A stretch of DNA of 54,449 nucleotides, from assembly GCA_029780075.1 (NCBI GenBank), contig JAKOZI010000070.1, forward strand, positions 1 to 54,449. The letters run 5' to 3'. Below are positions 1,462-42,884 of the stretch, piece by piece. Every line of letters begins with the position of its first letter. Within the stretch, counting starts at the first letter, position 1. Origin of the DNA: Pseudomonadota bacterium (GTDB lineage Bacteria > Pseudomonadota > Gammaproteobacteria > Burkholderiales > Rhodocyclaceae). Both the position numbers and the translations under genes were made by a program. The notes under the pieces are model-generated. The model worked only from the letters and a program-made list of their open reading frames with translations. It searched no databases and was not told the DNA's origin.

Positions 1462-2646
1462 CTAGTCGGCCTGTTTTCTCAGGAACGCCGGGATGTCGTA
1501 GCGATCAACGCCGCTATTGGCCAGCGCTTCGACGGTCGCGCTGCGACCCTTGCGCACGATTGCCGGAACCTGATCCAGACTGGAGTAGTCGATGCTCGGC
1601 CCATGCGGGTAACGGTCGCCGGTGCCGGTGGCCTGATTGAGGCCGGAACCCGTGTTGATCACTTCGAAATTCTGCCGCTTGGCCTGCGGCTGGCCGAGAC
1701 CCGTGGCCACCACCGTGACGCGGATGTCCTCGCCCATGTCCTGATCATAGACGGCGCCGAAGATGATATGCGCGTCGTCAGCCGCGAAGGCGCGGACGGT
1801 ATTCATCACCTCATTCACTTCCTTCATCTTCAGGGAGCGCGTGGCGGTGATGTTGACCAGTACGCCCTTGGCGCCGGACAGGTTGACGCCTTCGAGCAAT
1901 GGCGAGGCCACCGCACGTTCGGCGGCAATGCGCGCGCGGTCGACACCGGCGGCGTTGGCCGAGCCCATCATGGCCATGCCCATTTCGCCCATCACCGTAC
2001 GCACGTCCTCGAAGTCGACGTTGACCAGGCCGGGGAAGTTGATGATCTCGGCAATTCCGCCAACCGCGTTGCGCAACACGTTGTCGGCGGCCTTGAAGGC
2101 ATCATCCATCGAAATGTCGTCGCCGAGGACGTCCATCAGCCGGTCATTCAGGATGACGATCAGCGAATCGACGTGCTTCTGAAGTTCGGCAATGCCGACG
2201 TCTGCCACTTTCAGGCGCTTGCCTTCGAAACCGAATGGCTTGGTCACCACGGCCACGGTCAGCACGCCGAGTTCGCGGGCCACCTCGGCAACGATCGGGG
2301 CGGCGCCGGTTCCCGTACCGCCCCCCATGCCGGCGGTGATGAACACCATGTGTGCACCCCTGAGCGCCTCGGCGATGGCGTCGCGCTCCTCAATCGCGGC
2401 GCTGCGCCCGGCTTCCGGTTTGGCACCGGCGCCAAGGCCGGTCTTGCCCAGTTGCAGTTTCTGGACGGCAATACTGCGGCCCAGCGCCTGCGAGTCGGTA
2501 TTGGCGGCGATGAAGTCGATCACACCATTGACTCCTTCGCGGATCATGTGATCAACGGCGTTTCCTCCGGCGCCGCCGATCCCGATGACCTTGATCACCG
2601 TATCCTGATCGCTGTCTCTTTCGTCTTTGTCGATGATTTCAAACAT
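1462..2646 (-). CDS. ftsZ: Cell division protein FtsZ
   Basis: Tubulin-like GTPase that polymerises into the cytokinetic ring at mid-cell. The 394-residue product shows the nucleotide-binding [13 protein letters not shown] segment near residue 22, the tubulin signature GGGTGTG at 108-114, and the T7-loop region [18 protein letters not shown] short variable linker follows, then the conserved C-terminal peptide [10 protein letters not shown] that binds FtsA, ZipA and MinC. A strong ribosome binding site (AGAGGAGG) precedes the ATG. It is separated from ftsA by 67 bp, the widest gap inside the division block. A GATAAT hexamer at 2700-2695 could be part of an internal promoter. Confidence 0.98.
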
Positions 2647-2713
2647 TGTTGCCTCCTCTGCAAAAGTAGCTCAATAGCTGGTAAAAAACGTGTGATTATC
2701 GTTCACAACGGGA

Positions 2714-3943
2714 TCAGAAATTCTTTTCAAACCAGGATTTCATGCGCCCGAACACCTGTTTGACGTCGCGTGTTTCCCGCACCTTCAAGCCACGCTTGCG
2801 TTGCGTCTGAGCCTCCAGCAGCAAACCGCAGGCCGTGGCAAAACGCGGGCTTTGCACCACATCGGCAAGGGCCCCCTGATACTTGGGAACACCCAGGCGA
2901 ACGGGCATGTGAAAGATTTCCTCGCCCAGTTCGATCATCCCCGGCATGACCGAGGCGCCTCCGGTCAGGACGATGCCGGAGGACAACACATCCTCGAAAC
3001 CGGAACGACGAAGTTCCGCCTGGATCAGTTCGAACAATTCCTCGACGCGCGGCTGGATGACATCCGCCAGCGCCCGGCGCGACAGTTTGCGCGAAGGACG
3101 ATCGTCGACCCCGGCGACATCCAGCACGTCTTCCGGGTCCGCCAGATGCGCCAGCGCACAGCCATACTTGCGCTTGATGTCTTCGGCCTCGCGCGTCGGC
3201 GTACGCAGTGCCATTGCAATGTCATTGGTGATCTGGTCGCCGGCGATGGGAATGATCGACGTGTGGCGGATGGCCCCCTGCGTCCACACCGCCAGATCGG
3301 TGGTGCCGCCACCAATGTCGATCAGGCAGATGCCGAGGTCCTTCTCGTCTTCCGAGAGCACCGCGCAACTCGACGCCAGCGGCTGCAGCACCAGGTCGTT
3401 CACCTCCAGTCCGCAACGGCGAACGCACTTGACGATGTTCTGGGCGGCGGAAACCGCTCCGGTGACGATGTGCACCTTCACCTCGAGCCGGAAACCACTC
3501 ATGCCGATCGGCTCGCGGATGCCATCCTGGTCGTCGATGATGAATTCCTGGGTCAGGATGTGCAGGATTTCCTGATCGGCGGGAATCGGCATCGCACGCG
3601 CCGTTTCGATCACTCGCTCGACATCCATTGTGGTGACTTCCTTGTCCTTGATGGCCACCATGCCATTGGAGTTGAAGCTGCGGATGTGACTGCCGGCGAT
3701 TCCGGTGTACACATCTCGCACCTTGCAATCGGCCATCAGTTCCACTTCCTGCAGCACGCGGGAGATTGTGGCGACCGTCTCTTCAATGTTGACCACGACG
3801 CCTTTCTTGAGACCCTTCGACTCCTGCGACCCCATGCCGATGACGTTCAGCCGCCCCTCCGGCGTGACTTCGGCAACCAGTGCCACAATCTTCGACGTGC
3901 CGATGTCCAGTCCGACGATCAGATCCTTGCTATCCCTGCTCAT
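2714..3943 (-). CDS. ftsA: Cell division protein FtsA
   Basis: Actin-like ATPase that tethers FtsZ to the membrane and recruits later divisome proteins. The 409-residue product begins MSRDSKDLIVGLDIGTSKIVALV, with the phosphate-1 loop GLDIGTSKI. It contains the phosphate-2 motif CLIDIGGGTTDLAV and the adenosine-motif region IVLTGGASVMPG, and ends in the amphipathic targeting sequence GRMKSWFEKNF. Its start codon overlaps the ftsQ stop by 4 bp (ATGA), so translation is probably coupled. Confidence 0.98.
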   Translation of the reverse strand: MSRDSKDLIVGLDIGTSKIVALVAEVTPEGRLNVIGMGSQESKGLKKGVVVNIEETVATISRVLQEVELMADCKVRDVYTGIAGSHIRSFNSNGMVAIKDKEVTTMDVERVIETARAMPIPADQEILHILTQEFIIDDQDGIREPIGMSGFRLEVKVHIVTGAVSAAQNIVKCVRRCGLEVNDLVLQPLASSCAVLSEDEKDLGICLIDIGGGTTDLAVWTQGAIRHTSIIPIAGDQITNDIAMALRTPTREAEDIKRKYGCALAHLADPEDVLDVAGVDDRPSRKLSRRALADVIQPRVEELFELIQAELRRSGFEDVLSSGIVLTGGASVMPGMIELGEEIFHMPVRLGVPKYQGALADVVQSPRFATACGLLLEAQTQRKRGLKVRETRDVKQVFGRMKSWFEKNF

Positions 3944-36065: not shown

Positions 36066-36169
36066 CCGGCCAGATCCCAGGGGCACCAGCAACGTTTTGC
36101 CGATCGCCAAAAGCGGGTTATGCTTTCTGGCTTCGTTGTCGAGCCTTGAGCTATGGAAAGGAGGAGCAC

Positions 36170-37225
36170 ATGTTTTACGTGACATTTCACGGTGGCAGTG
36201 TGAGCAACGCGATCAACAACGTCCATGCCTACGACGTGATCAACGGCGAGCCAACCTGTGTCACTTCTGCGGCACTGCAGACGCCAGCCAAATCCCCGCC
36301 GCTGAGCGAACTGCGCGACATCGTTTTCGGTCCGGGAGACAGACTGTATGTAATCAACGGCTACAAGGACGCCAGCCAGGTCCTCGTCTACAGCGGAAAG
36401 CCCGATGCCGACCATACGCATGCCTACCTGGGGATCTATGCCGATGCTCGAGTCTCTGATGGCGTTGTACATCCCTTCGCTCTGGCCTTCGATGGCAGCA
36501 ACCGGGCGTACTTGTCCAGCCAGGACAGCAATGTCGTCACCGCGCTGCAAGCGCCGGGAGGTGTCGTGAAACGCGCTCGGGCCCTGCCGCTTGCCAGCTT
36601 CCTGAAAGCGCAGAAGGGCAAACGCTTCCTCGATGGCACCTTCGTCGCGTCGTCCATCGGCGACCTGCCGGCATCTCCACGGCGCGCGCCTTCCAGCCTC
36701 AGCCGACCGGCGGGACTGGACGTGCTCTTCGAAGCGGATCCGTCAAAAAAGAAACCCCGGCGGCGCCGGGTCGCGCACTCGGTACGCGATGTCGTGGTCT
36801 GCGGCACCTCGCTGTACGTTGCCGACGAACCCGGCAACACAGTGAAGATCTACGATCTCCGGAACGGCAGGACGCAAGGGCAACTGCAAGGACAAATCGC
36901 CGACGCCCAGTTCCTGGGAGCCCCGGTGCACCTGTTGGCGCAAGGCGAACATCTTTACATCGGCAGCAGCGCCACCGATACCGTTCTTCGGTATCACCTT
37001 GGAACCGGCGAACTGCGAACGGTGCTCAGTGGCGTCAGGACGATCGCCGGCATGTGCTTCGACAACACCGGCAACTTTTACGTCGCCTCGCGCGAGGACC
37101 GGGCCATCTACCACTGTGGAACCGACTTTTCCGCGCCGCAGCCGTTCATCAGCGGCCTGGCAGACAACCCGGAGTTCCTGGTTTATGCCACGTCCTCCGC
37201 GTCAACTCTTACCTCAAACACCTGA
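36170..37225 (+). CDS. Beta-propeller-like protein of unknown function
   Basis: A 351-residue protein with a very strong ribosome site (AAGGAGG) before the ATG at 36170. The repeating strand pattern is that of an NHL/SMP-30-like propeller: RDIVFGPGDRLYVINGY, VHPFALAFDGSNRAYLSS, VRDVVVCGTSLYVADEP, VHLLAQGEHLYIGSSATDTV and TIAGMCFDNTGNFYVASRED. No signal peptide is visible, so it is probably cytoplasmic. A basic stretch KKKPRRRR (about residue 200) interrupts the propeller. No specific family or enzyme recognised. Confidence 0.75.
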   Translation: MFYVTFHGGSVSNAINNVHAYDVINGEPTCVTSAALQTPAKSPPLSELRDIVFGPGDRLYVINGYKDASQVLVYSGKPDADHTHAYLGIYADARVSDGVVHPFALAFDGSNRAYLSSQDSNVVTALQAPGGVVKRARALPLASFLKAQKGKRFLDGTFVASSIGDLPASPRRAPSSLSRPAGLDVLFEADPSKKKPRRRRVAHSVRDVVVCGTSLYVADEPGNTVKIYDLRNGRTQGQLQGQIADAQFLGAPVHLLAQGEHLYIGSSATDTVLRYHLGTGELRTVLSGVRTIAGMCFDNTGNFYVASREDRAIYHCGTDFSAPQPFISGLADNPEFLVYATSSASTLTSNT

Positions 37226-37313: not shown

Positions 37314-38462
37314 TTACTGCATCGCGCCAGGCATCAGAAGCTCCACATCCGGCAGATTTCTGAGCCCCAAAGGCAAGGCGAATTCAGCGCCCGGACTGAC
37401 ATCCTGGCCTTCGATGGAAGGCTTGCCCACCACGCCTCGCAACCAGGAGGCGCCGTTGGGCCGAAAGTCCAGGACTTCGACCCCCGCGAACGCACCGTGC
37501 CACAGTGGATAATTGCCCACCTGGATTCCCGACAACCCGTAGTTGAACAGACCAACACCCGCAAACAGGTTGTTCAGCGTGTGCACCTGCGTCCCGGCCG
37601 GAAGTCGCTGCCGCCACGCACGGATGAACCATGCCGGTTTCATGCCTTCGCTGATCAAGGTATTGTGCGACAACACCAGCCGATTCCTGGGCCAGGACTC
37701 GCCTTCGGCACCATAGGCAATGACTACCGGGTTGGCGGTGGTGCTGCTCTGCCCGATGACATTGCCGATCAGCATCGCCTCCCCACCGTTCGGCAAGTCA
37801 ACCTCGTAGGAAGCCCGGCCCGCCGCACCATCGTAGATCAGGTTGTAGCGAATATCGGTGCCCCGCGCCCGCGACTTGATCAGATGGCCAATATACCCGG
37901 AATGGAAACGGCTCCCCGAAACCTTCAGCGAGGCAATCCGGCCCGCATAGAGCAGATGCGACAGGGGTTGCTCCTGTTTGACAGCCTCGGCAAAGAGGCT
38001 GCTTTCGATCACCAGTTCAGCCTTCTCGTCATTGCTGGTCAGGACACCCATCTGGTTGTCCAGAAAGGCACAATTCCTGATCAGCAACCTTCCCCCCTCG
38101 AAACGAATACCGGCACCATTACCGTCCGCAACGCGTGCCCCTCGGAACTCGATGTTCTCGATCAGGAAATCGCCGTTGCGTATGACCCAGATGGCCTTTC
38201 CTTCGGCACTCCTCCCATCCGCAACCAGGACCGGGCGTCGGCCAATGCCACGGATCGTCAATTGCCGCTGCGACCACAGCGCGACATCGCCGTGCCACTC
38301 GCCCCCGGCAATCTCGACAATATCCCCATCCTTCGCCAACTGTGCGGCATCCGCGATGCGCGAGACATCCCCACCCACGCCGACGCGGATCACGCGCGCC
38401 CATGACGAGGGCGAGAGCAGCGTCGAACAGACCAGGATGGTTGTCAGCCAGGCGTGCCGCAT
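37314..38462 (-). CDS. Secreted right-handed beta-helix protein
   Basis: A 382-residue protein with a signal peptide (MRHAWLTTILVCSTLLSPSS, cleavage near WARVIRVG). Short repeats then follow, each of strand-turn-strand type typical of parallel beta-helices: GDIVEIAGGEWHGDV, LTIRGIGRRPVLVADG, FLIENIEFRGARVADGNGAG, LLIRNCAFLDNQMGVL, and LVLSHNTLISEG. Such proteins often bind or cleave polysaccharide; I see no confident catalytic motif. It starts 2 bp after the polymerase-like gene stop and is likely co-transcribed with it. Confidence 0.8.
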   Translation of the reverse strand: MRHAWLTTILVCSTLLSPSSWARVIRVGVGGDVSRIADAAQLAKDGDIVEIAGGEWHGDVALWSQRQLTIRGIGRRPVLVADGRSAEGKAIWVIRNGDFLIENIEFRGARVADGNGAGIRFEGGRLLIRNCAFLDNQMGVLTSNDEKAELVIESSLFAEAVKQEQPLSHLLYAGRIASLKVSGSRFHSGYIGHLIKSRARGTDIRYNLIYDGAAGRASYEVDLPNGGEAMLIGNVIGQSSTTANPVVIAYGAEGESWPRNRLVLSHNTLISEGMKPAWFIRAWRQRLPAGTQVHTLNNLFAGVGLFNYGLSGIQVGNYPLWHGAFAGVEVLDFRPNGASWLRGVVGKPSIEGQDVSPGAEFALPLGLRNLPDVELLMPGAMQ

Positions 38463-38464
38463 CG

Positions 38465-40960
38465 CTACACAGCCTCGCGTGGCGATGGAGGTTGTCTGGT
38501 TGCCTGCATCGTGGTCGGCGGTGGACCGAAGGCAGCGAGAGACAGCGCGTACAAGACCAGCAGGTAGTAGATGAAGGCCAGCCTGGGTACGTCGGTCAGG
38601 CTGTCGAACATGCCCACTGCCAGAAATCCGATGATCGAGGCCGTCAGGTACGGGGACAACCGGTGCCCGCGAGCCTTGCCGAAGTTCAAGCGCCACAAGG
38701 CGCCCAGGGTCATCAGCAGAAACACCGTCAAACCCAGCGCCCCTTGATCAAACAGGATGTTGACCAGCACATTCTTCGCATGCCACGGCAGGTGCTCGTG
38801 GTCACTGGTAAAGAACCAACGCTGCATTTCCTTGCCGAAGTCACCGTTCGCCAGCAGGTTGTCGCTGCCGCCCGTAGTCAATACCAGATCGTCGAGATCG
38901 GCAGCCCCGCCCTGATTCAGAATTCCCACGGAAAACATCTTGAAACGTGGGGCATACCACGGGCCACCAGCCGAAGCCTTGCCCTCCAGACGTAACTGGA
39001 CAGGCTGCCAGGTGCCCTTGCTCGCCTTGATGGCCACCGTTCCGATCGCGCAATCCGTCGCATAGAGAAGATGCTTGGCACAGACTTCTGCATGGATTCC
39101 CACGTCCGAGCCGGCCCTCACCTTGAGTTTCAACTCGAATGGCCCCTGGGCAGCGAGGTCCAGTCGCTGCGAAACGCGAAAGATATCGCCAAAGCTCATC
39201 GGATGGCGCGCACCCGTGAGATAAAGCCAGGCCTGCCCACCTTCGCCGCGAACCTGATACGCCCCGGGAGATGCGCCATTCGGGGCCGCAAAATAATAGT
39301 TCGCTGGAAATCTTCCCAGACCTTTGCCAAACGCGACGTCCCCGGCAGTCTCCAGTAGCGCTACCGCCTGCGTCCAATGCGAAAGGCGCCCCTCCAGATC
39401 CTTGCCAGACGTCGAGAACCGGTCCCCCATGTAGGCCCCGCCAAAAAAGACCGCCACCGCGGCACTCACCACCAGGGCAATCGCCAGCAGACCGCCTTGC
39501 CATCGCCAATCGGCAGGCCACAGGGGCTGCCTGGCCAGCGCGCCGACGAGAACAACCAGGAACAGCATCGCCAGCGCCAGGCAGCTTCCCGGCAGAGCCT
39601 CGACGCCTCCCCAATGACCGGCAACGTTGGCGGCGGCAAGCGCGAGGCAGACAAAACCGCCCAAACAAATTGCCGGCCGGAAGCGGACGGCCATCACTTT
39701 CGGAGCATGCAGCAATCCGAACACGCTGAAAAACAGCAGCGCAAAAAGGAGGTAGGGACCCTTGGGCAGGAAGTTGGAGAAAACGACCAGCAGCACGCCC
39801 AACAGAAAGCCCAGGACGCTACCGACAAGCAACCGATCCGGCGGAATGTTCCGCAACACCAGGGGCGTCGACAGCGCCACCATCACGACCCCGAATAACG
39901 CCAACAGGCCGCGATAACCGCCATAAGGAAAAACGAGACGCGCCATGACGGCCAGACAGGCGATGGCAACCACCCAGCGAACGACGCCCCAATGGGGTGC
40001 CTGGTGGCCCGCTTCTCCGCGCACTTCCTTGCTGCGCGTCTGCCACAGGAGCAAGGGAAGGGATACCAACAGAGCCAGATAGACACCGCGGGAAAAGGTG
40101 GTCAGCGACGCATACGCGGCCAGGCCGACCAGGGTCAGGGCAATCGCCGACTGTGGCACACCCCCGGCGTTGCGCAAGGCCCAGATGGCGAACGGAAAGG
40201 TCAGCAGCAACCAGCCATCGAGCGCGGCACCGCCGACGTGCATCTCCCAGAACAGCGCCGTCGAGCGGTAGTCGCTAGAGAAATTGAGCAGGTCGGTGAA
40301 CGCCAGGCGTTCCCACAGCGCCGCCAGCGAAGCGGTAGCCAGCCCAAGAGCCATTCCCAGAGCCAGTTTGCGGGCCGCCGCAAACGCGGACTGGTCCGGC
40401 CGCGGTGCCATCAGGGGAACCATCAGCAACGCCAGAAAGAAACTCCGGGCAATACGAACACTGTTCATCGGTCCGTCGTAACCCTGATACCAGCCGAAAA
40501 CGAAGCCTCCCGCGTCGGCAAATCCACGCGTCATCGCCAGCAGCAGCGATATCGACATCAGGCCGGCCAGGAACAAGCACGACCAGGATAGTCGCAGCGA
40601 ACAGGCGCTCGTCCTGTACGCGCATCTGGCATAACCCCCGACAGCCGCCGCCAGAATCAGGAGATCGACTTCCTCAAAGCTGATCCACCCGGTCCAGGGA
40701 GCAAGGCCGAGCAGCGGCAGCAGCGCCGGAACGACGACCAGCCACAGGCCTGGATTGACGAAGAAGCATGCGGCGGCAAGGACGAATCCAAGCAGGGGAA
40801 CGGGCTGCCACAGCGGATGGTGCAGGGCAATGAACACCCCCAGTGCGGCCGCCGCGAGCAGCAGCAGGAGACTCAGGCCTCTGGCATGGAGTGGATGAAA
40901 CGGCAAGGTTTTCAACAAAAGCGGTCTTTCGTCTCTGCGTGGCGCGACCGGGAGCGGCAA
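38465..40960 (-). CDS. O-antigen ligase/polymerase-like membrane protein with an inserted extracytoplasmic beta-sandwich
   Basis: An 831-residue multi-pass protein of the Wzy/WaaL-like class. About a dozen hydrophobic segments fill residues 28-510. The usual catalytic-loop features appear as GRLSHWTQAVAL (524-535), FGKGLGRFPANYYF and, far downstream, HEHLPWHAKNVLVNILFDQG (721-740), before the final transmembrane segments. Between them, residues about 565-705 form an extra strand-rich domain (FELKLKVRAGSDVGIHAEV, TWQPVQLRLEGKASAG, DLDDLVLTTGG) resembling a carbohydrate-binding jelly roll. The family role would be joining glycan units on undecaprenyl carriers. Divergent from the AsnB-like gene. 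Confidence 0.8.
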   Translation of the reverse strand: MPLPVAPRRDERPLLLKTLPFHPLHARGLSLLLLLAAAALGVFIALHHPLWQPVPLLGFVLAAACFFVNPGLWLVVVPALLPLLGLAPWTGWISFEEVDLLILAAAVGGYARCAYRTSACSLRLSWSCLFLAGLMSISLLLAMTRGFADAGGFVFGWYQGYDGPMNSVRIARSFFLALLMVPLMAPRPDQSAFAAARKLALGMALGLATASLAALWERLAFTDLLNFSSDYRSTALFWEMHVGGAALDGWLLLTFPFAIWALRNAGGVPQSAIALTLVGLAAYASLTTFSRGVYLALLVSLPLLLWQTRSKEVRGEAGHQAPHWGVVRWVVAIACLAVMARLVFPYGGYRGLLALFGVVMVALSTPLVLRNIPPDRLLVGSVLGFLLGVLLVVFSNFLPKGPYLLFALLFFSVFGLLHAPKVMAVRFRPAICLGGFVCLALAAANVAGHWGGVEALPGSCLALAMLFLVVLVGALARQPLWPADWRWQGGLLAIALVVSAAVAVFFGGAYMGDRFSTSGKDLEGRLSHWTQAVALLETAGDVAFGKGLGRFPANYYFAAPNGASPGAYQVRGEGGQAWLYLTGARHPMSFGDIFRVSQRLDLAAQGPFELKLKVRAGSDVGIHAEVCAKHLLYATDCAIGTVAIKASKGTWQPVQLRLEGKASAGGPWYAPRFKMFSVGILNQGGAADLDDLVLTTGGSDNLLANGDFGKEMQRWFFTSDHEHLPWHAKNVLVNILFDQGALGLTVFLLMTLGALWRLNFGKARGHRLSPYLTASIIGFLAVGMFDSLTDVPRLAFIYYLLVLYALSLAAFGPPPTTMQATRQPPSPREAV

Positions 40961-41087: not shown

Positions 41088-42884
41088 ATGATGAAAGATA
41101 GACTCTCTGGCCAGATTGATCTCGCAGGCCTCTTCGGCACCGGCGCTGCGCCGCTTTCCATCAGGACACTGGCGTTGCAGGGCGATGATGTCGCACGCGA
41201 CGCAGAGGCCATCTGCGCGGTCATCGGCTCCCCCTCTTTCAGGGACGGAAGTGCCGCAGGCATCTCGCTACCCGGCGGTCTGGCCACGGAACTTCTGAAA
41301 GCCTGGCACCGCAGCGGGGTCGACATCGCCTCGCAACTGCACGGATCCTACGCCCTGGCCATTGTCGATTCGGCGCGCAAGTGTGCCTTCCTGGCTACCG
41401 ACCGCTTCGCCATCGAGACGCTGTGTTATCGGGCCGATGGCCAGGTGCTCGCTTTCGCCGATCGCGCTGACCGCGTTCCGGGACACGGCGGCGAACTTGA
41501 TCCACAGGCGATTTTCGATTATCTGTACTTCCACATGATTCCTGCGCCGCGCACCATCTTCCAGCAGGTACGCCGGTTGCCGGCGGCGCATTCGCTGCTG
41601 GTCGACCGCAACGGTGCGCACGTGAAGCGCCACTGGCCCCTGCAGTTCGACGAGCATCACCGTCAATCCTTTGCCCCGGCACGCGACGGTTTCCGCGCGC
41701 TGATCCGCGAGAGCGTCGCCGAGCAGATCACGGGTCACCAACGCGTCGGCGCCTTCCTGTCGGGCGGTACCGACAGCTCGACGGTGGCCGGCATGCTCGG
41801 CCAGATCACCGGCAAACCAGCGCCCGTATACTCGATCGGCTTCGACGCCGAGGGTTATGACGAAATGGAGTACGCCCGCCTCGCCGCGACTCACTTCGGC
41901 TGCGAACACCACGAATATTACGTGACACCGGCGGACCTCGTGGACAGCATTCCGGCGGTCGCGCAGCATCACGATCAACCCTTCGGCAACTCTTCCGCCC
42001 TGCCGGCCTATTACTGCGCCAGGATCGCGCAGGCCGACGGCTGTACCAGGATGCTCGCCGGCGACGGTGGCGATGAACTGTTCGGGGGCAATTCGCGCTA
42101 CGCGATGCAACAGATCTTCGAGTTCTACCACCACCTGCCGCCAGGCATGCGGCGAGCGATCGAACCGCTGTGCGAAGATGGTAGCCCCTTGCGCCGAATC
42201 CCCGGCATCAAACAGGCCACCGGTTATGTGCGGCACGCCCGCGTGCCGATGCCGGATCGCCTGCAGAGTTTCAACCTGATCATGCAACTCGATCCGGCCA
42301 GCGTGCTCAACCCGGACTTTCTGGCGCAACTCGACCTTAACGAGCCGTCAAGACACATGCAGGCCACCTGGAACGAGTGCCAGGCGCCGAGTCTGGTCAA
42401 TCGCATGCTCGCTTACGACTGGCGCTACACACTCGCCGACAGTGACCTGCCGAAAGTACGCGGCGCCACGCAGATGGCCGGTATCGAAGTCGCTTATCCC
42501 CTGCTCTCCGACAGGCTGACCGATTTCTCGATGGCGCTACCGCCCGACTGGAAACTGCGCCGCTTCAAGCTGCGCTGGTTCTTCAAGGAGGCGCTGCGCG
42601 GCTTCCTGCCCGACGCGATCCTCACCAAGAAGAAGAAGGGCTTCGGACTGCCGTTTGGCGTCTGGGCGACACGCACCCCGGCGTTGCGGGAACTCGCCGA
42701 GGATTCGCTGCGCACCCTCGCCGGACGAGGAATCGTACGCGCCGACTTCACGACCCGGCTGATGGCCGAGTATCTGCCGGGACACCCGGGCTATTACGGA
42801 GAAATGGTGTGGATCCTGACCATGCTGGAGCAATGGCTGCGTCGGCACGATACGCAAGCAGCCCAGACGCGCGCCGCGAGGTGA
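41088..42884 (+). CDS. Asparagine-synthetase-like protein lacking the glutaminase cysteine
   Basis: A 598-residue protein with the two-domain AsnB layout. The N-terminal Ntn-type domain is recognisable (LHGSYALAIVDSARKCAFLATDRF), but the protein begins MMKDRLSGQIDLAGLF rather than MCG, so the catalytic Cys2 of glutamine hydrolysis is missing. The synthetase domain has the PP-loop SGGTDS at 225-230, FGNSSALPAYY, GDGGDELFGGNSRY, and EVAYPLLSDRLTDF, with KKKKGFGLPFG near the C-terminus. It may use ammonia or another amine, or act as an adenylating ligase. Divergent from the polymerase-like gene 127 bp away. Confidence 0.85.
   Translation: MMKDRLSGQIDLAGLFGTGAAPLSIRTLALQGDDVARDAEAICAVIGSPSFRDGSAAGISLPGGLATELLKAWHRSGVDIASQLHGSYALAIVDSARKCAFLATDRFAIETLCYRADGQVLAFADRADRVPGHGGELDPQAIFDYLYFHMIPAPRTIFQQVRRLPAAHSLLVDRNGAHVKRHWPLQFDEHHRQSFAPARDGFRALIRESVAEQITGHQRVGAFLSGGTDSSTVAGMLGQITGKPAPVYSIGFDAEGYDEMEYARLAATHFGCEHHEYYVTPADLVDSIPAVAQHHDQPFGNSSALPAYYCARIAQADGCTRMLAGDGGDELFGGNSRYAMQQIFEFYHHLPPGMRRAIEPLCEDGSPLRRIPGIKQATGYVRHARVPMPDRLQSFNLIMQLDPASVLNPDFLAQLDLNEPSRHMQATWNECQAPSLVNRMLAYDWRYTLADSDLPKVRGATQMAGIEVAYPLLSDRLTDFSMALPPDWKLRRFKLRWFFKEALRGFLPDAILTKKKKGFGLPFGVWATRTPALRELAEDSLRTLAGRGIVRADFTTRLMAEYLPGHPGYYGEMVWILTMLEQWLRRHDTQAAQTRAAR

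What the first reader, a model, noticed from the sequence alone, without database searches (positions are those of the whole stretch)
38465..40960. Glycan polymerase/ligase with a beta-sandwich domain inserted in its catalytic loop
In Wzy/WaaL-like proteins the segment from RxxxW...GxGxG to the HxHN-like motif is normally a compact periplasmic loop. Here the two halves (GRLSHWTQAVAL at 524-535 and HEHLPWHAKNVLVNIL at 721-736) are separated by nearly 200 residues, of which about 565-705 look like a jelly-roll carbohydrate-binding module. A binding domain placed inside the catalytic loop could hold the growing glycan or acceptor. I do not know a described family with this layout.
Basis: partly seen in the sequence, partly recalled or inferred. 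Interest (0 to 1): 0.75.

Follow-up and report, generated by a model that had tools for sequence, protein, structure and literature searches.

The report
Sugar-chain polymerase with built-in sugar-binding domain
A bacterial membrane protein, likely the enzyme that joins sugar units into a surface polysaccharide, carries inside its predicted catalytic loop an extra stretch of about 155 residues that is predicted to fold like a sugar-binding module, so it would be a chain builder with its own sugar clamp.

Summary

All 358 sequences aligned (query plus 357 homologues, found with insert-bearing queries) have it, in three subfamilies marked by K, D or W at 729.

Context favours a Wzy polymerase: in 8 of 21 named loci it lies with an amidotransferase-like gene and Wzx, and no other ORF there has nine or more predicted membrane segments. 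A paralogous type sits beside an initiating sugar transferase in three loci. A beta-helix protein is a recurrent neighbour, sometimes fused. Against: 13 of 21 loci, and the window itself, lack Wzx nearby.

Sugar binding is inferred, not shown. The listings I saw contained no paper on this layout.

The parts
38465..40960 (-). Wzy/WaaL-superfamily membrane protein, 831 aa as an ORF; likely start TTG at 40918 (817 aa)
40085..40099 (-). TFSRG motif, residues 288-292 with R291 (invariant in 358 of 358); likely first diphosphate-binding Arg
   Evidence: role inferred from WaaL Arg-191 in PMC10920833
39521..40048 (-). Variable extra membrane segment, residues 305-480, missing in the paralogue
39356..39391 (-). 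GRLSHWTQAVAL, residues 524-535 with R525 and W529 (invariant in 358 of 358 aligned proteins)
39311..39328 (-). GKGLGR, residues 545-550, conserved part of the loop before the insert
38795..39295 (-). Inserted beta-sandwich, residues 556-722, CBM4-like by predicted fold and by profile
39050..39082 (-). C627-C637 hairpin with two Cys placed opposite each other; predicted disulfide
   Evidence: C627 358 of 358, C637 357 of 358; hairpin in the model; disulfide inferred
38816..38848 (-). NGDF...W, residues 705-715, closing segment of the module
   Evidence: aligned to NGTFEENADGW of 4mgq
38753..38800 (-). HEHLPWHAKNVLVNIL, residues 721-736 with H727 and subfamily-specific K729
37314..38462 (-). Right-handed beta-helix protein (382 aa; N-terminus looks like a signal peptide by eye), starting two bases after the polymerase stop; its homologue is fused to the polymerase in 6 of 120 listed homologues
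41088..42884 (+). AsnB/XrtA-type amidotransferase-like protein, divergently transcribed; its homologue shares the locus in 8 of 21 named relatives

Best explanation
This is a Wzy/WaaL-superfamily membrane protein, likely the polymerase of a Wzx/Wzy polysaccharide pathway, whose predicted catalytic periplasmic loop contains an insertion of about 155 residues that is predicted to fold as a CBM4-type sugar-binding beta-sandwich and would hold the glycan at the active site. Shown: the insertion, its length, its presence in three subfamilies, and the gene neighbourhood. Predicted by model: the WaaL fold of the membrane part and the CBM-like fold of the insert. Inferred: R291 and R525 would bind the lipid diphosphate; H727, two residues before the usual His position, would activate the acceptor; the module, stiffened by a C627-C637 disulfide, would bind the growing chain or the acceptor repeat unit and keep it next to the catalytic residues, making transfer more processive or more selective. 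The beta-helix partner would modify or trim the same chain in the periplasm.
Confidence: 0.58

Rival explanations
1. It is a ligase (WaaL- or PglL-like) rather than a polymerase: it transfers a finished glycan to lipid A-core, a protein or another acceptor, and the module recognises that glycan or acceptor.
For: The nearest solved fold is a ligase (7tpg). A near-invariant His is retained, as in O-ligases, whereas polymerase families of the same inverting clan (except GT127) carry a conserved Asp or Glu there (PMC10920833, passages). In 13 of 21 named loci no homologue of the asnB/Wzx genes is near. The window's genome shows no PF04932 match at E<=0.001 other than the paralogue, so one of the two could be its ligase.
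Against: In 8 of 21 loci it is the only ORF beside Wzx with nine or more predicted membrane segments, and the paralogue type is next to an initiating sugar transferase in three loci. Polymerases and ligases share this fold, so 7tpg does not discriminate.
Confidence: 0.28
2. The insert is a structural or protein-docking beta-sandwich, for example for a co-polymerase or the beta-helix partner, and binds no sugar.
Against: The best match stands above most others and is a CBM by both fold and sequence. Q598, W651, N705 and W715 are nearly invariant, though their exposure was not measured.
Confidence: 0.25
3. The insert is a neutral, lineage-specific decoration without a role in catalysis.
For: The family is patchy: 44 of 199 genomes of the family (4 of them only weak hits), 35 of 300 in the order, 5 of 398 in the phylum.
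Against: It is present in 358 of 358 aligned sequences across three subfamilies and in a genome outside the order, with a near-invariant Cys pair (spaced differently in that outside genome).
Confidence: 0.06

Closest known systems
WaaL O-antigen ligase (CAZy GT121; PDB 7tpg)
   Different: A ~155-residue beta-sandwich in the loop; the usual His position is mostly K, D or W by subfamily and the near-invariant His is two residues earlier.
Pfam Wzy_C PF04932 polymerases and ligases
   Same: The paralogue and 16 of 53 aligned members are recognised by the model; same order of motifs.
   Different: Ordinary members measured in the same order have 42-55 residues between Arg and His (25 of 30).
CBM of the xylanase PbXyn10C (PDB 4mgq)
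   Different: Its host is a GH10 hydrolase (named so; that the module is inserted there too is recalled), here a membrane glycosyltransferase; 18-19% identity.
Emb arabinosyltransferases (EmbC)
   Same: A membrane GT-C glycan polymerase with a CBM-like domain that binds acceptor (PMC3044687, abstract and discussion read).
   Different: Different GT-C family; in EmbC the module studied is at the C-terminus, not inside a Wzy/WaaL-type catalytic loop.
MtGlu5 endoglucanase with a CBM29-like domain inserted in the catalytic domain
   Same: A binding module inside a catalytic domain (PMC9063844, title, abstract line, headings and search listing seen).
   Different: A hydrolase, other CBM family.

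Membership tests
Pfam Wzy_C (PF04932) | Match to the curated HMM | tested here: inconclusive
   Query: no hit at E<=10. 16 of 53 aligned members hit at E<=1, best 4.1e-7. Same-genome paralogue 39.1 bits, above the 31.7 cut-off.
WaaL / GT121 | WaaL membrane fold | tested here: met
WaaL / GT121 | Two conserved Arg for the lipid diphosphate | tested here: met
   R291 and R525 in 358 of 358; their structural equivalence to Arg-191 and Arg-265 was not checked on coordinates.
WaaL / GT121 | Conserved acceptor-activating His at the usual position | tested here: inconclusive
   Profile alignment puts K729 at the His of four ordinary Wzy_C proteins; H727, two residues earlier, is conserved in 355 of 358.
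Wzy polymerase | Encoded with Wzx and glycosyltransferases | tested here: inconclusive
   True for 8 of 21 named loci as to Wzx; not seen for the window itself or the other 13.
Wzy polymerase | Polymerises Und-PP-linked repeat units | not testable with these tools
   Needs a mutant or an in vitro assay.
CBM4-like carbohydrate-binding module | CBM beta-sandwich fold | tested here: met
   (predicted structure; profile match E 1.3e-5 to a CBM).
CBM4-like carbohydrate-binding module | Match to a CBM Pfam family | tested here: not met
   No Pfam family for 5 inserts, native or permuted; one of 53 aligned members hit CBM_4_9 at E 0.33.
CBM4-like carbohydrate-binding module | Binds carbohydrate | not testable with these tools
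   No ligand data.
Exosortase-A O-ligase TIGR03097 | NCBIfam score above the cut-off | tested here: not met
   Query no hit at E<=0.001; paralogue 19.4 bits against 188.1.

The most novel reading that the evidence does not exclude
A separate class of glycan polymerases that carry their own clamp: a CBM inside the catalytic loop grips the growing chain, replaces or supplements a separate chain-length regulator, and goes with a re-set active site (His moved two residues, its old place taken mainly by Lys, Asp or Trp according to subfamily), while a beta-helix enzyme, neighbouring or fused, works on the same chain as it emerges.
Probability: 0.25. Interest if true: 0.82.

Novelty: new variant of a known kind. 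Interest (0 to 1): 0.62.

Why it matters
How Wzy-type enzymes hold a growing polymer, choose acceptors and set chain length is open, and the enzymes are hard to study because they are membrane proteins with little conserved sequence. Here a soluble, separable domain is predicted in the active-site loop. It can be made alone, tested for binding, and removed. By record titles and source names the family reaches Candidatus Accumulibacter (to which the window probably belongs), Azonexus, Propionivibrio and Roseateles. Accumulibacter is a wastewater bacterium (recalled), so the substrate may be a matrix polysaccharide of practical interest.

Tried and rejected
Circular permutation of a CBM4/9 module: from recall, CBM4/9 modules open with NGDF...W, whereas here that segment closes the domain. 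I moved it to the front in 5 and 14 inserts. Pfam found nothing in either order, and the permuted profile lost the 4mgq match that the native order gives. So the native order is that of 4mgq; permutation relative to other CBMs stays a recalled impression.

Frame artefact: rejected; 831 aa open, and 52 relatives align at 42-62% identity.

Disorder: rejected on the models.

Sequence search of solved structures with the query alone gave nothing, and with the beta-helix protein nothing. Foldseek's top 50 for the full model did not list WaaL; only the VIA realignment did.

PF13425 in the own genome gave nothing, but its control rang nowhere, so this is uninformative.

In one search the beta-helix query was read in a wrong frame; its rows were dropped and the search repeated.

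Literature, listings only: no paper for the terms; 15 of 36 listed, 12 of 213, 4 of 4, 10 of 141, 10 of 393. No listed title or abstract start describes a Wzy/WaaL enzyme with an inserted CBM. In the Wzy review PMC12004945 the terms insertion and carbohydrate-binding do not occur. The library holds no preprints and few subscription papers, so this is not proof of absence.

Full report

Conservation. I aligned 358 sequences: the query and 357 of the 360 other proteins from three searches (three shorter than 580 residues were left out). All have 187-211 residues in this gap, but all were found with insert-bearing queries. Invariant or nearly so: R291, R525, W529, G547, G549, C627, L631 and W715 in 358; Q598, C637 and N705 in 357; H727 in 355. 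C627 and C637 sit opposite each other across a predicted hairpin, so a disulfide is likely; in G856 the Cys spacing differs. As a whole the insert varies more than the well-occupied parts of the core (entropy 2.18 against 1.50-1.87 bits).

Three subfamilies. The window type has Lys at 729 (121 of 121). The type of the same-genome paralogue on C59 has mainly Asp (108 of 117). A third, VanZ-fused type, mostly of about 1,100 residues, has mainly Trp (101 of 120) (VanZ by Pfam, listed). Profile alignment with four ordinary Wzy_C proteins puts residue 729 where these have the His of their HN/HS motif. The family thus seems to have moved the His by two residues. Whether it reaches the same place in space was not checked.

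Spread. At E<=1e-3, 44 of 199 genomes of the family had a match; four of these (G032, G074, G104, G124) had only weak matches. The weak matches I could read (L044, L045 and L047 from G104, G124 and G032, and L048, a second weak place in G030) are ordinary proteins of 450-526 residues without the insert; L046 from G074 was fetched but not read. At 1e-20, 35 of 300 in the order and 5 of 398 in the phylum had one, a single genome (G856) outside the order. G856 has the insert and an adjacent beta-helix ORF.

Neighbourhood. In 8 of 21 named loci (L005-L009, L015, L020, L024) the gene lies with an asnB-like gene and a Wzx-type flippase, in most also with a DegT aminotransferase (6), a FemAB/GNAT protein (7) and a family-4 glycosyltransferase (7); these are similarity clusters, with one member each of the last four kinds annotated and the asnB-like kind. 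A hydropathy count found no other ORF of 150 aa or more with nine or more segments in these 8 loci; in L007 frameshifts split both genes. The other 13 named loci show no homologue of that asnB or Wzx in the stretch fetched; in 7 of them a UvrD-type helicase gene lies nearby. In paralogue-type loci L102, L104 and L105, the three that I annotated, the next gene is an initiating sugar transferase. In the window the gene stands among genes that look like housekeeping genes, with a beta-helix gene starting two bases after its stop and an asnB-like gene divergent upstream. The beta-helix homologue is fused to the polymerase in 6 of 120 listed homologues and lies beside it in L020, the only one of the 21 named loci with it. 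Of the 18 distinct enzyme-bearing places compared, the window included, 6 have it in the stretch: the window, L049, L054, L100, L101 and L106; in L100 it lies about 2 kb away.

The window's organism. G018, of the same genus, codes for a protein identical over residues 500-1135 to P0242 of Candidatus Accumulibacter cognatus, so the window is probably Accumulibacter. Its genome (346 contigs, 99.7% complete, 6.1% contaminated) shows one PF04932 match, the paralogue, and a Wzx on C85 that is 61% identical to the Wzx of locus L005.

How it would work. Donor: polymer or repeat unit on undecaprenyl diphosphate, held by R291 and R525 (inferred from WaaL, PMC10920833, passages). Acceptor activation: H727 (inferred). 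Holding: the CBM-like module, rooted in the loop that carries these residues, grips the chain or acceptor (inferred). EmbC is the precedent for a CBM-like domain on a membrane polymerase: a Trp change in its module cut acceptor binding and product (PMC3044687, abstract and discussion). MtGlu5 is the precedent for a module inserted in a catalytic domain (PMC9063844, title, abstract line, headings).

Verdict. Fold and conservation: firm as predictions go. Polymerase rather than ligase: about two to one on context. Sugar holding: likely, untested. The layout is a new variant of a known enzyme kind; the listings of my paper searches did not show it described.

Noticed in passing
41088-42884 (+): The AsnB/XrtA-type amidotransferase-like protein and the 7 homologues read from other loci show no MCG, the usual N-terminal glutaminase nucleophile motif (recalled); L006's ORF call is truncated. 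It may use ammonia or another amine donor.
   Followed up: partly
L099:891-4295 (+); P0275, P0280, P0312: VanZ-fused members of this family are named VanZ family protein, or by one source glycopeptide antibiotics resistance protein, although L099 carries the Wzy/WaaL core and the insert; the resistance name looks like a misannotation from the VanZ part.
   Followed up: partly
L026:5830-6498 (-) (own genome C59): Near the paralogue lies an ORF ending in VPEPSSVALAALGLIAAGAATRRRRA, a PEP-CTERM-like sorting signal (recalled pattern), suggesting an exosortase system in this genome.
   Followed up: no
L041 and two VanZ-type homologues: The near-invariant His (H727) is Asn in L041 and Asp or Tyr in 2 of 120 VanZ-type proteins; possible inactive or altered copies.
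   Followed up: no
36146-37225 (+): A beta-propeller-like ORF (weak Kelch, NHL and PQQ matches) beside the beta-helix gene, convergent with it; role unknown.
   Followed up: no
L110 (own genome C85) 2383-3804: A Wzx 61% identical to that of locus L005, on another contig than the window gene: the pathway genes may be dispersed in this genome.
   Followed up: partly
L007:5959-8448: The polymerase gene and the Wzx gene of this Propionivibrio assembly are split by frameshifts, possibly sequencing errors.
   Followed up: no
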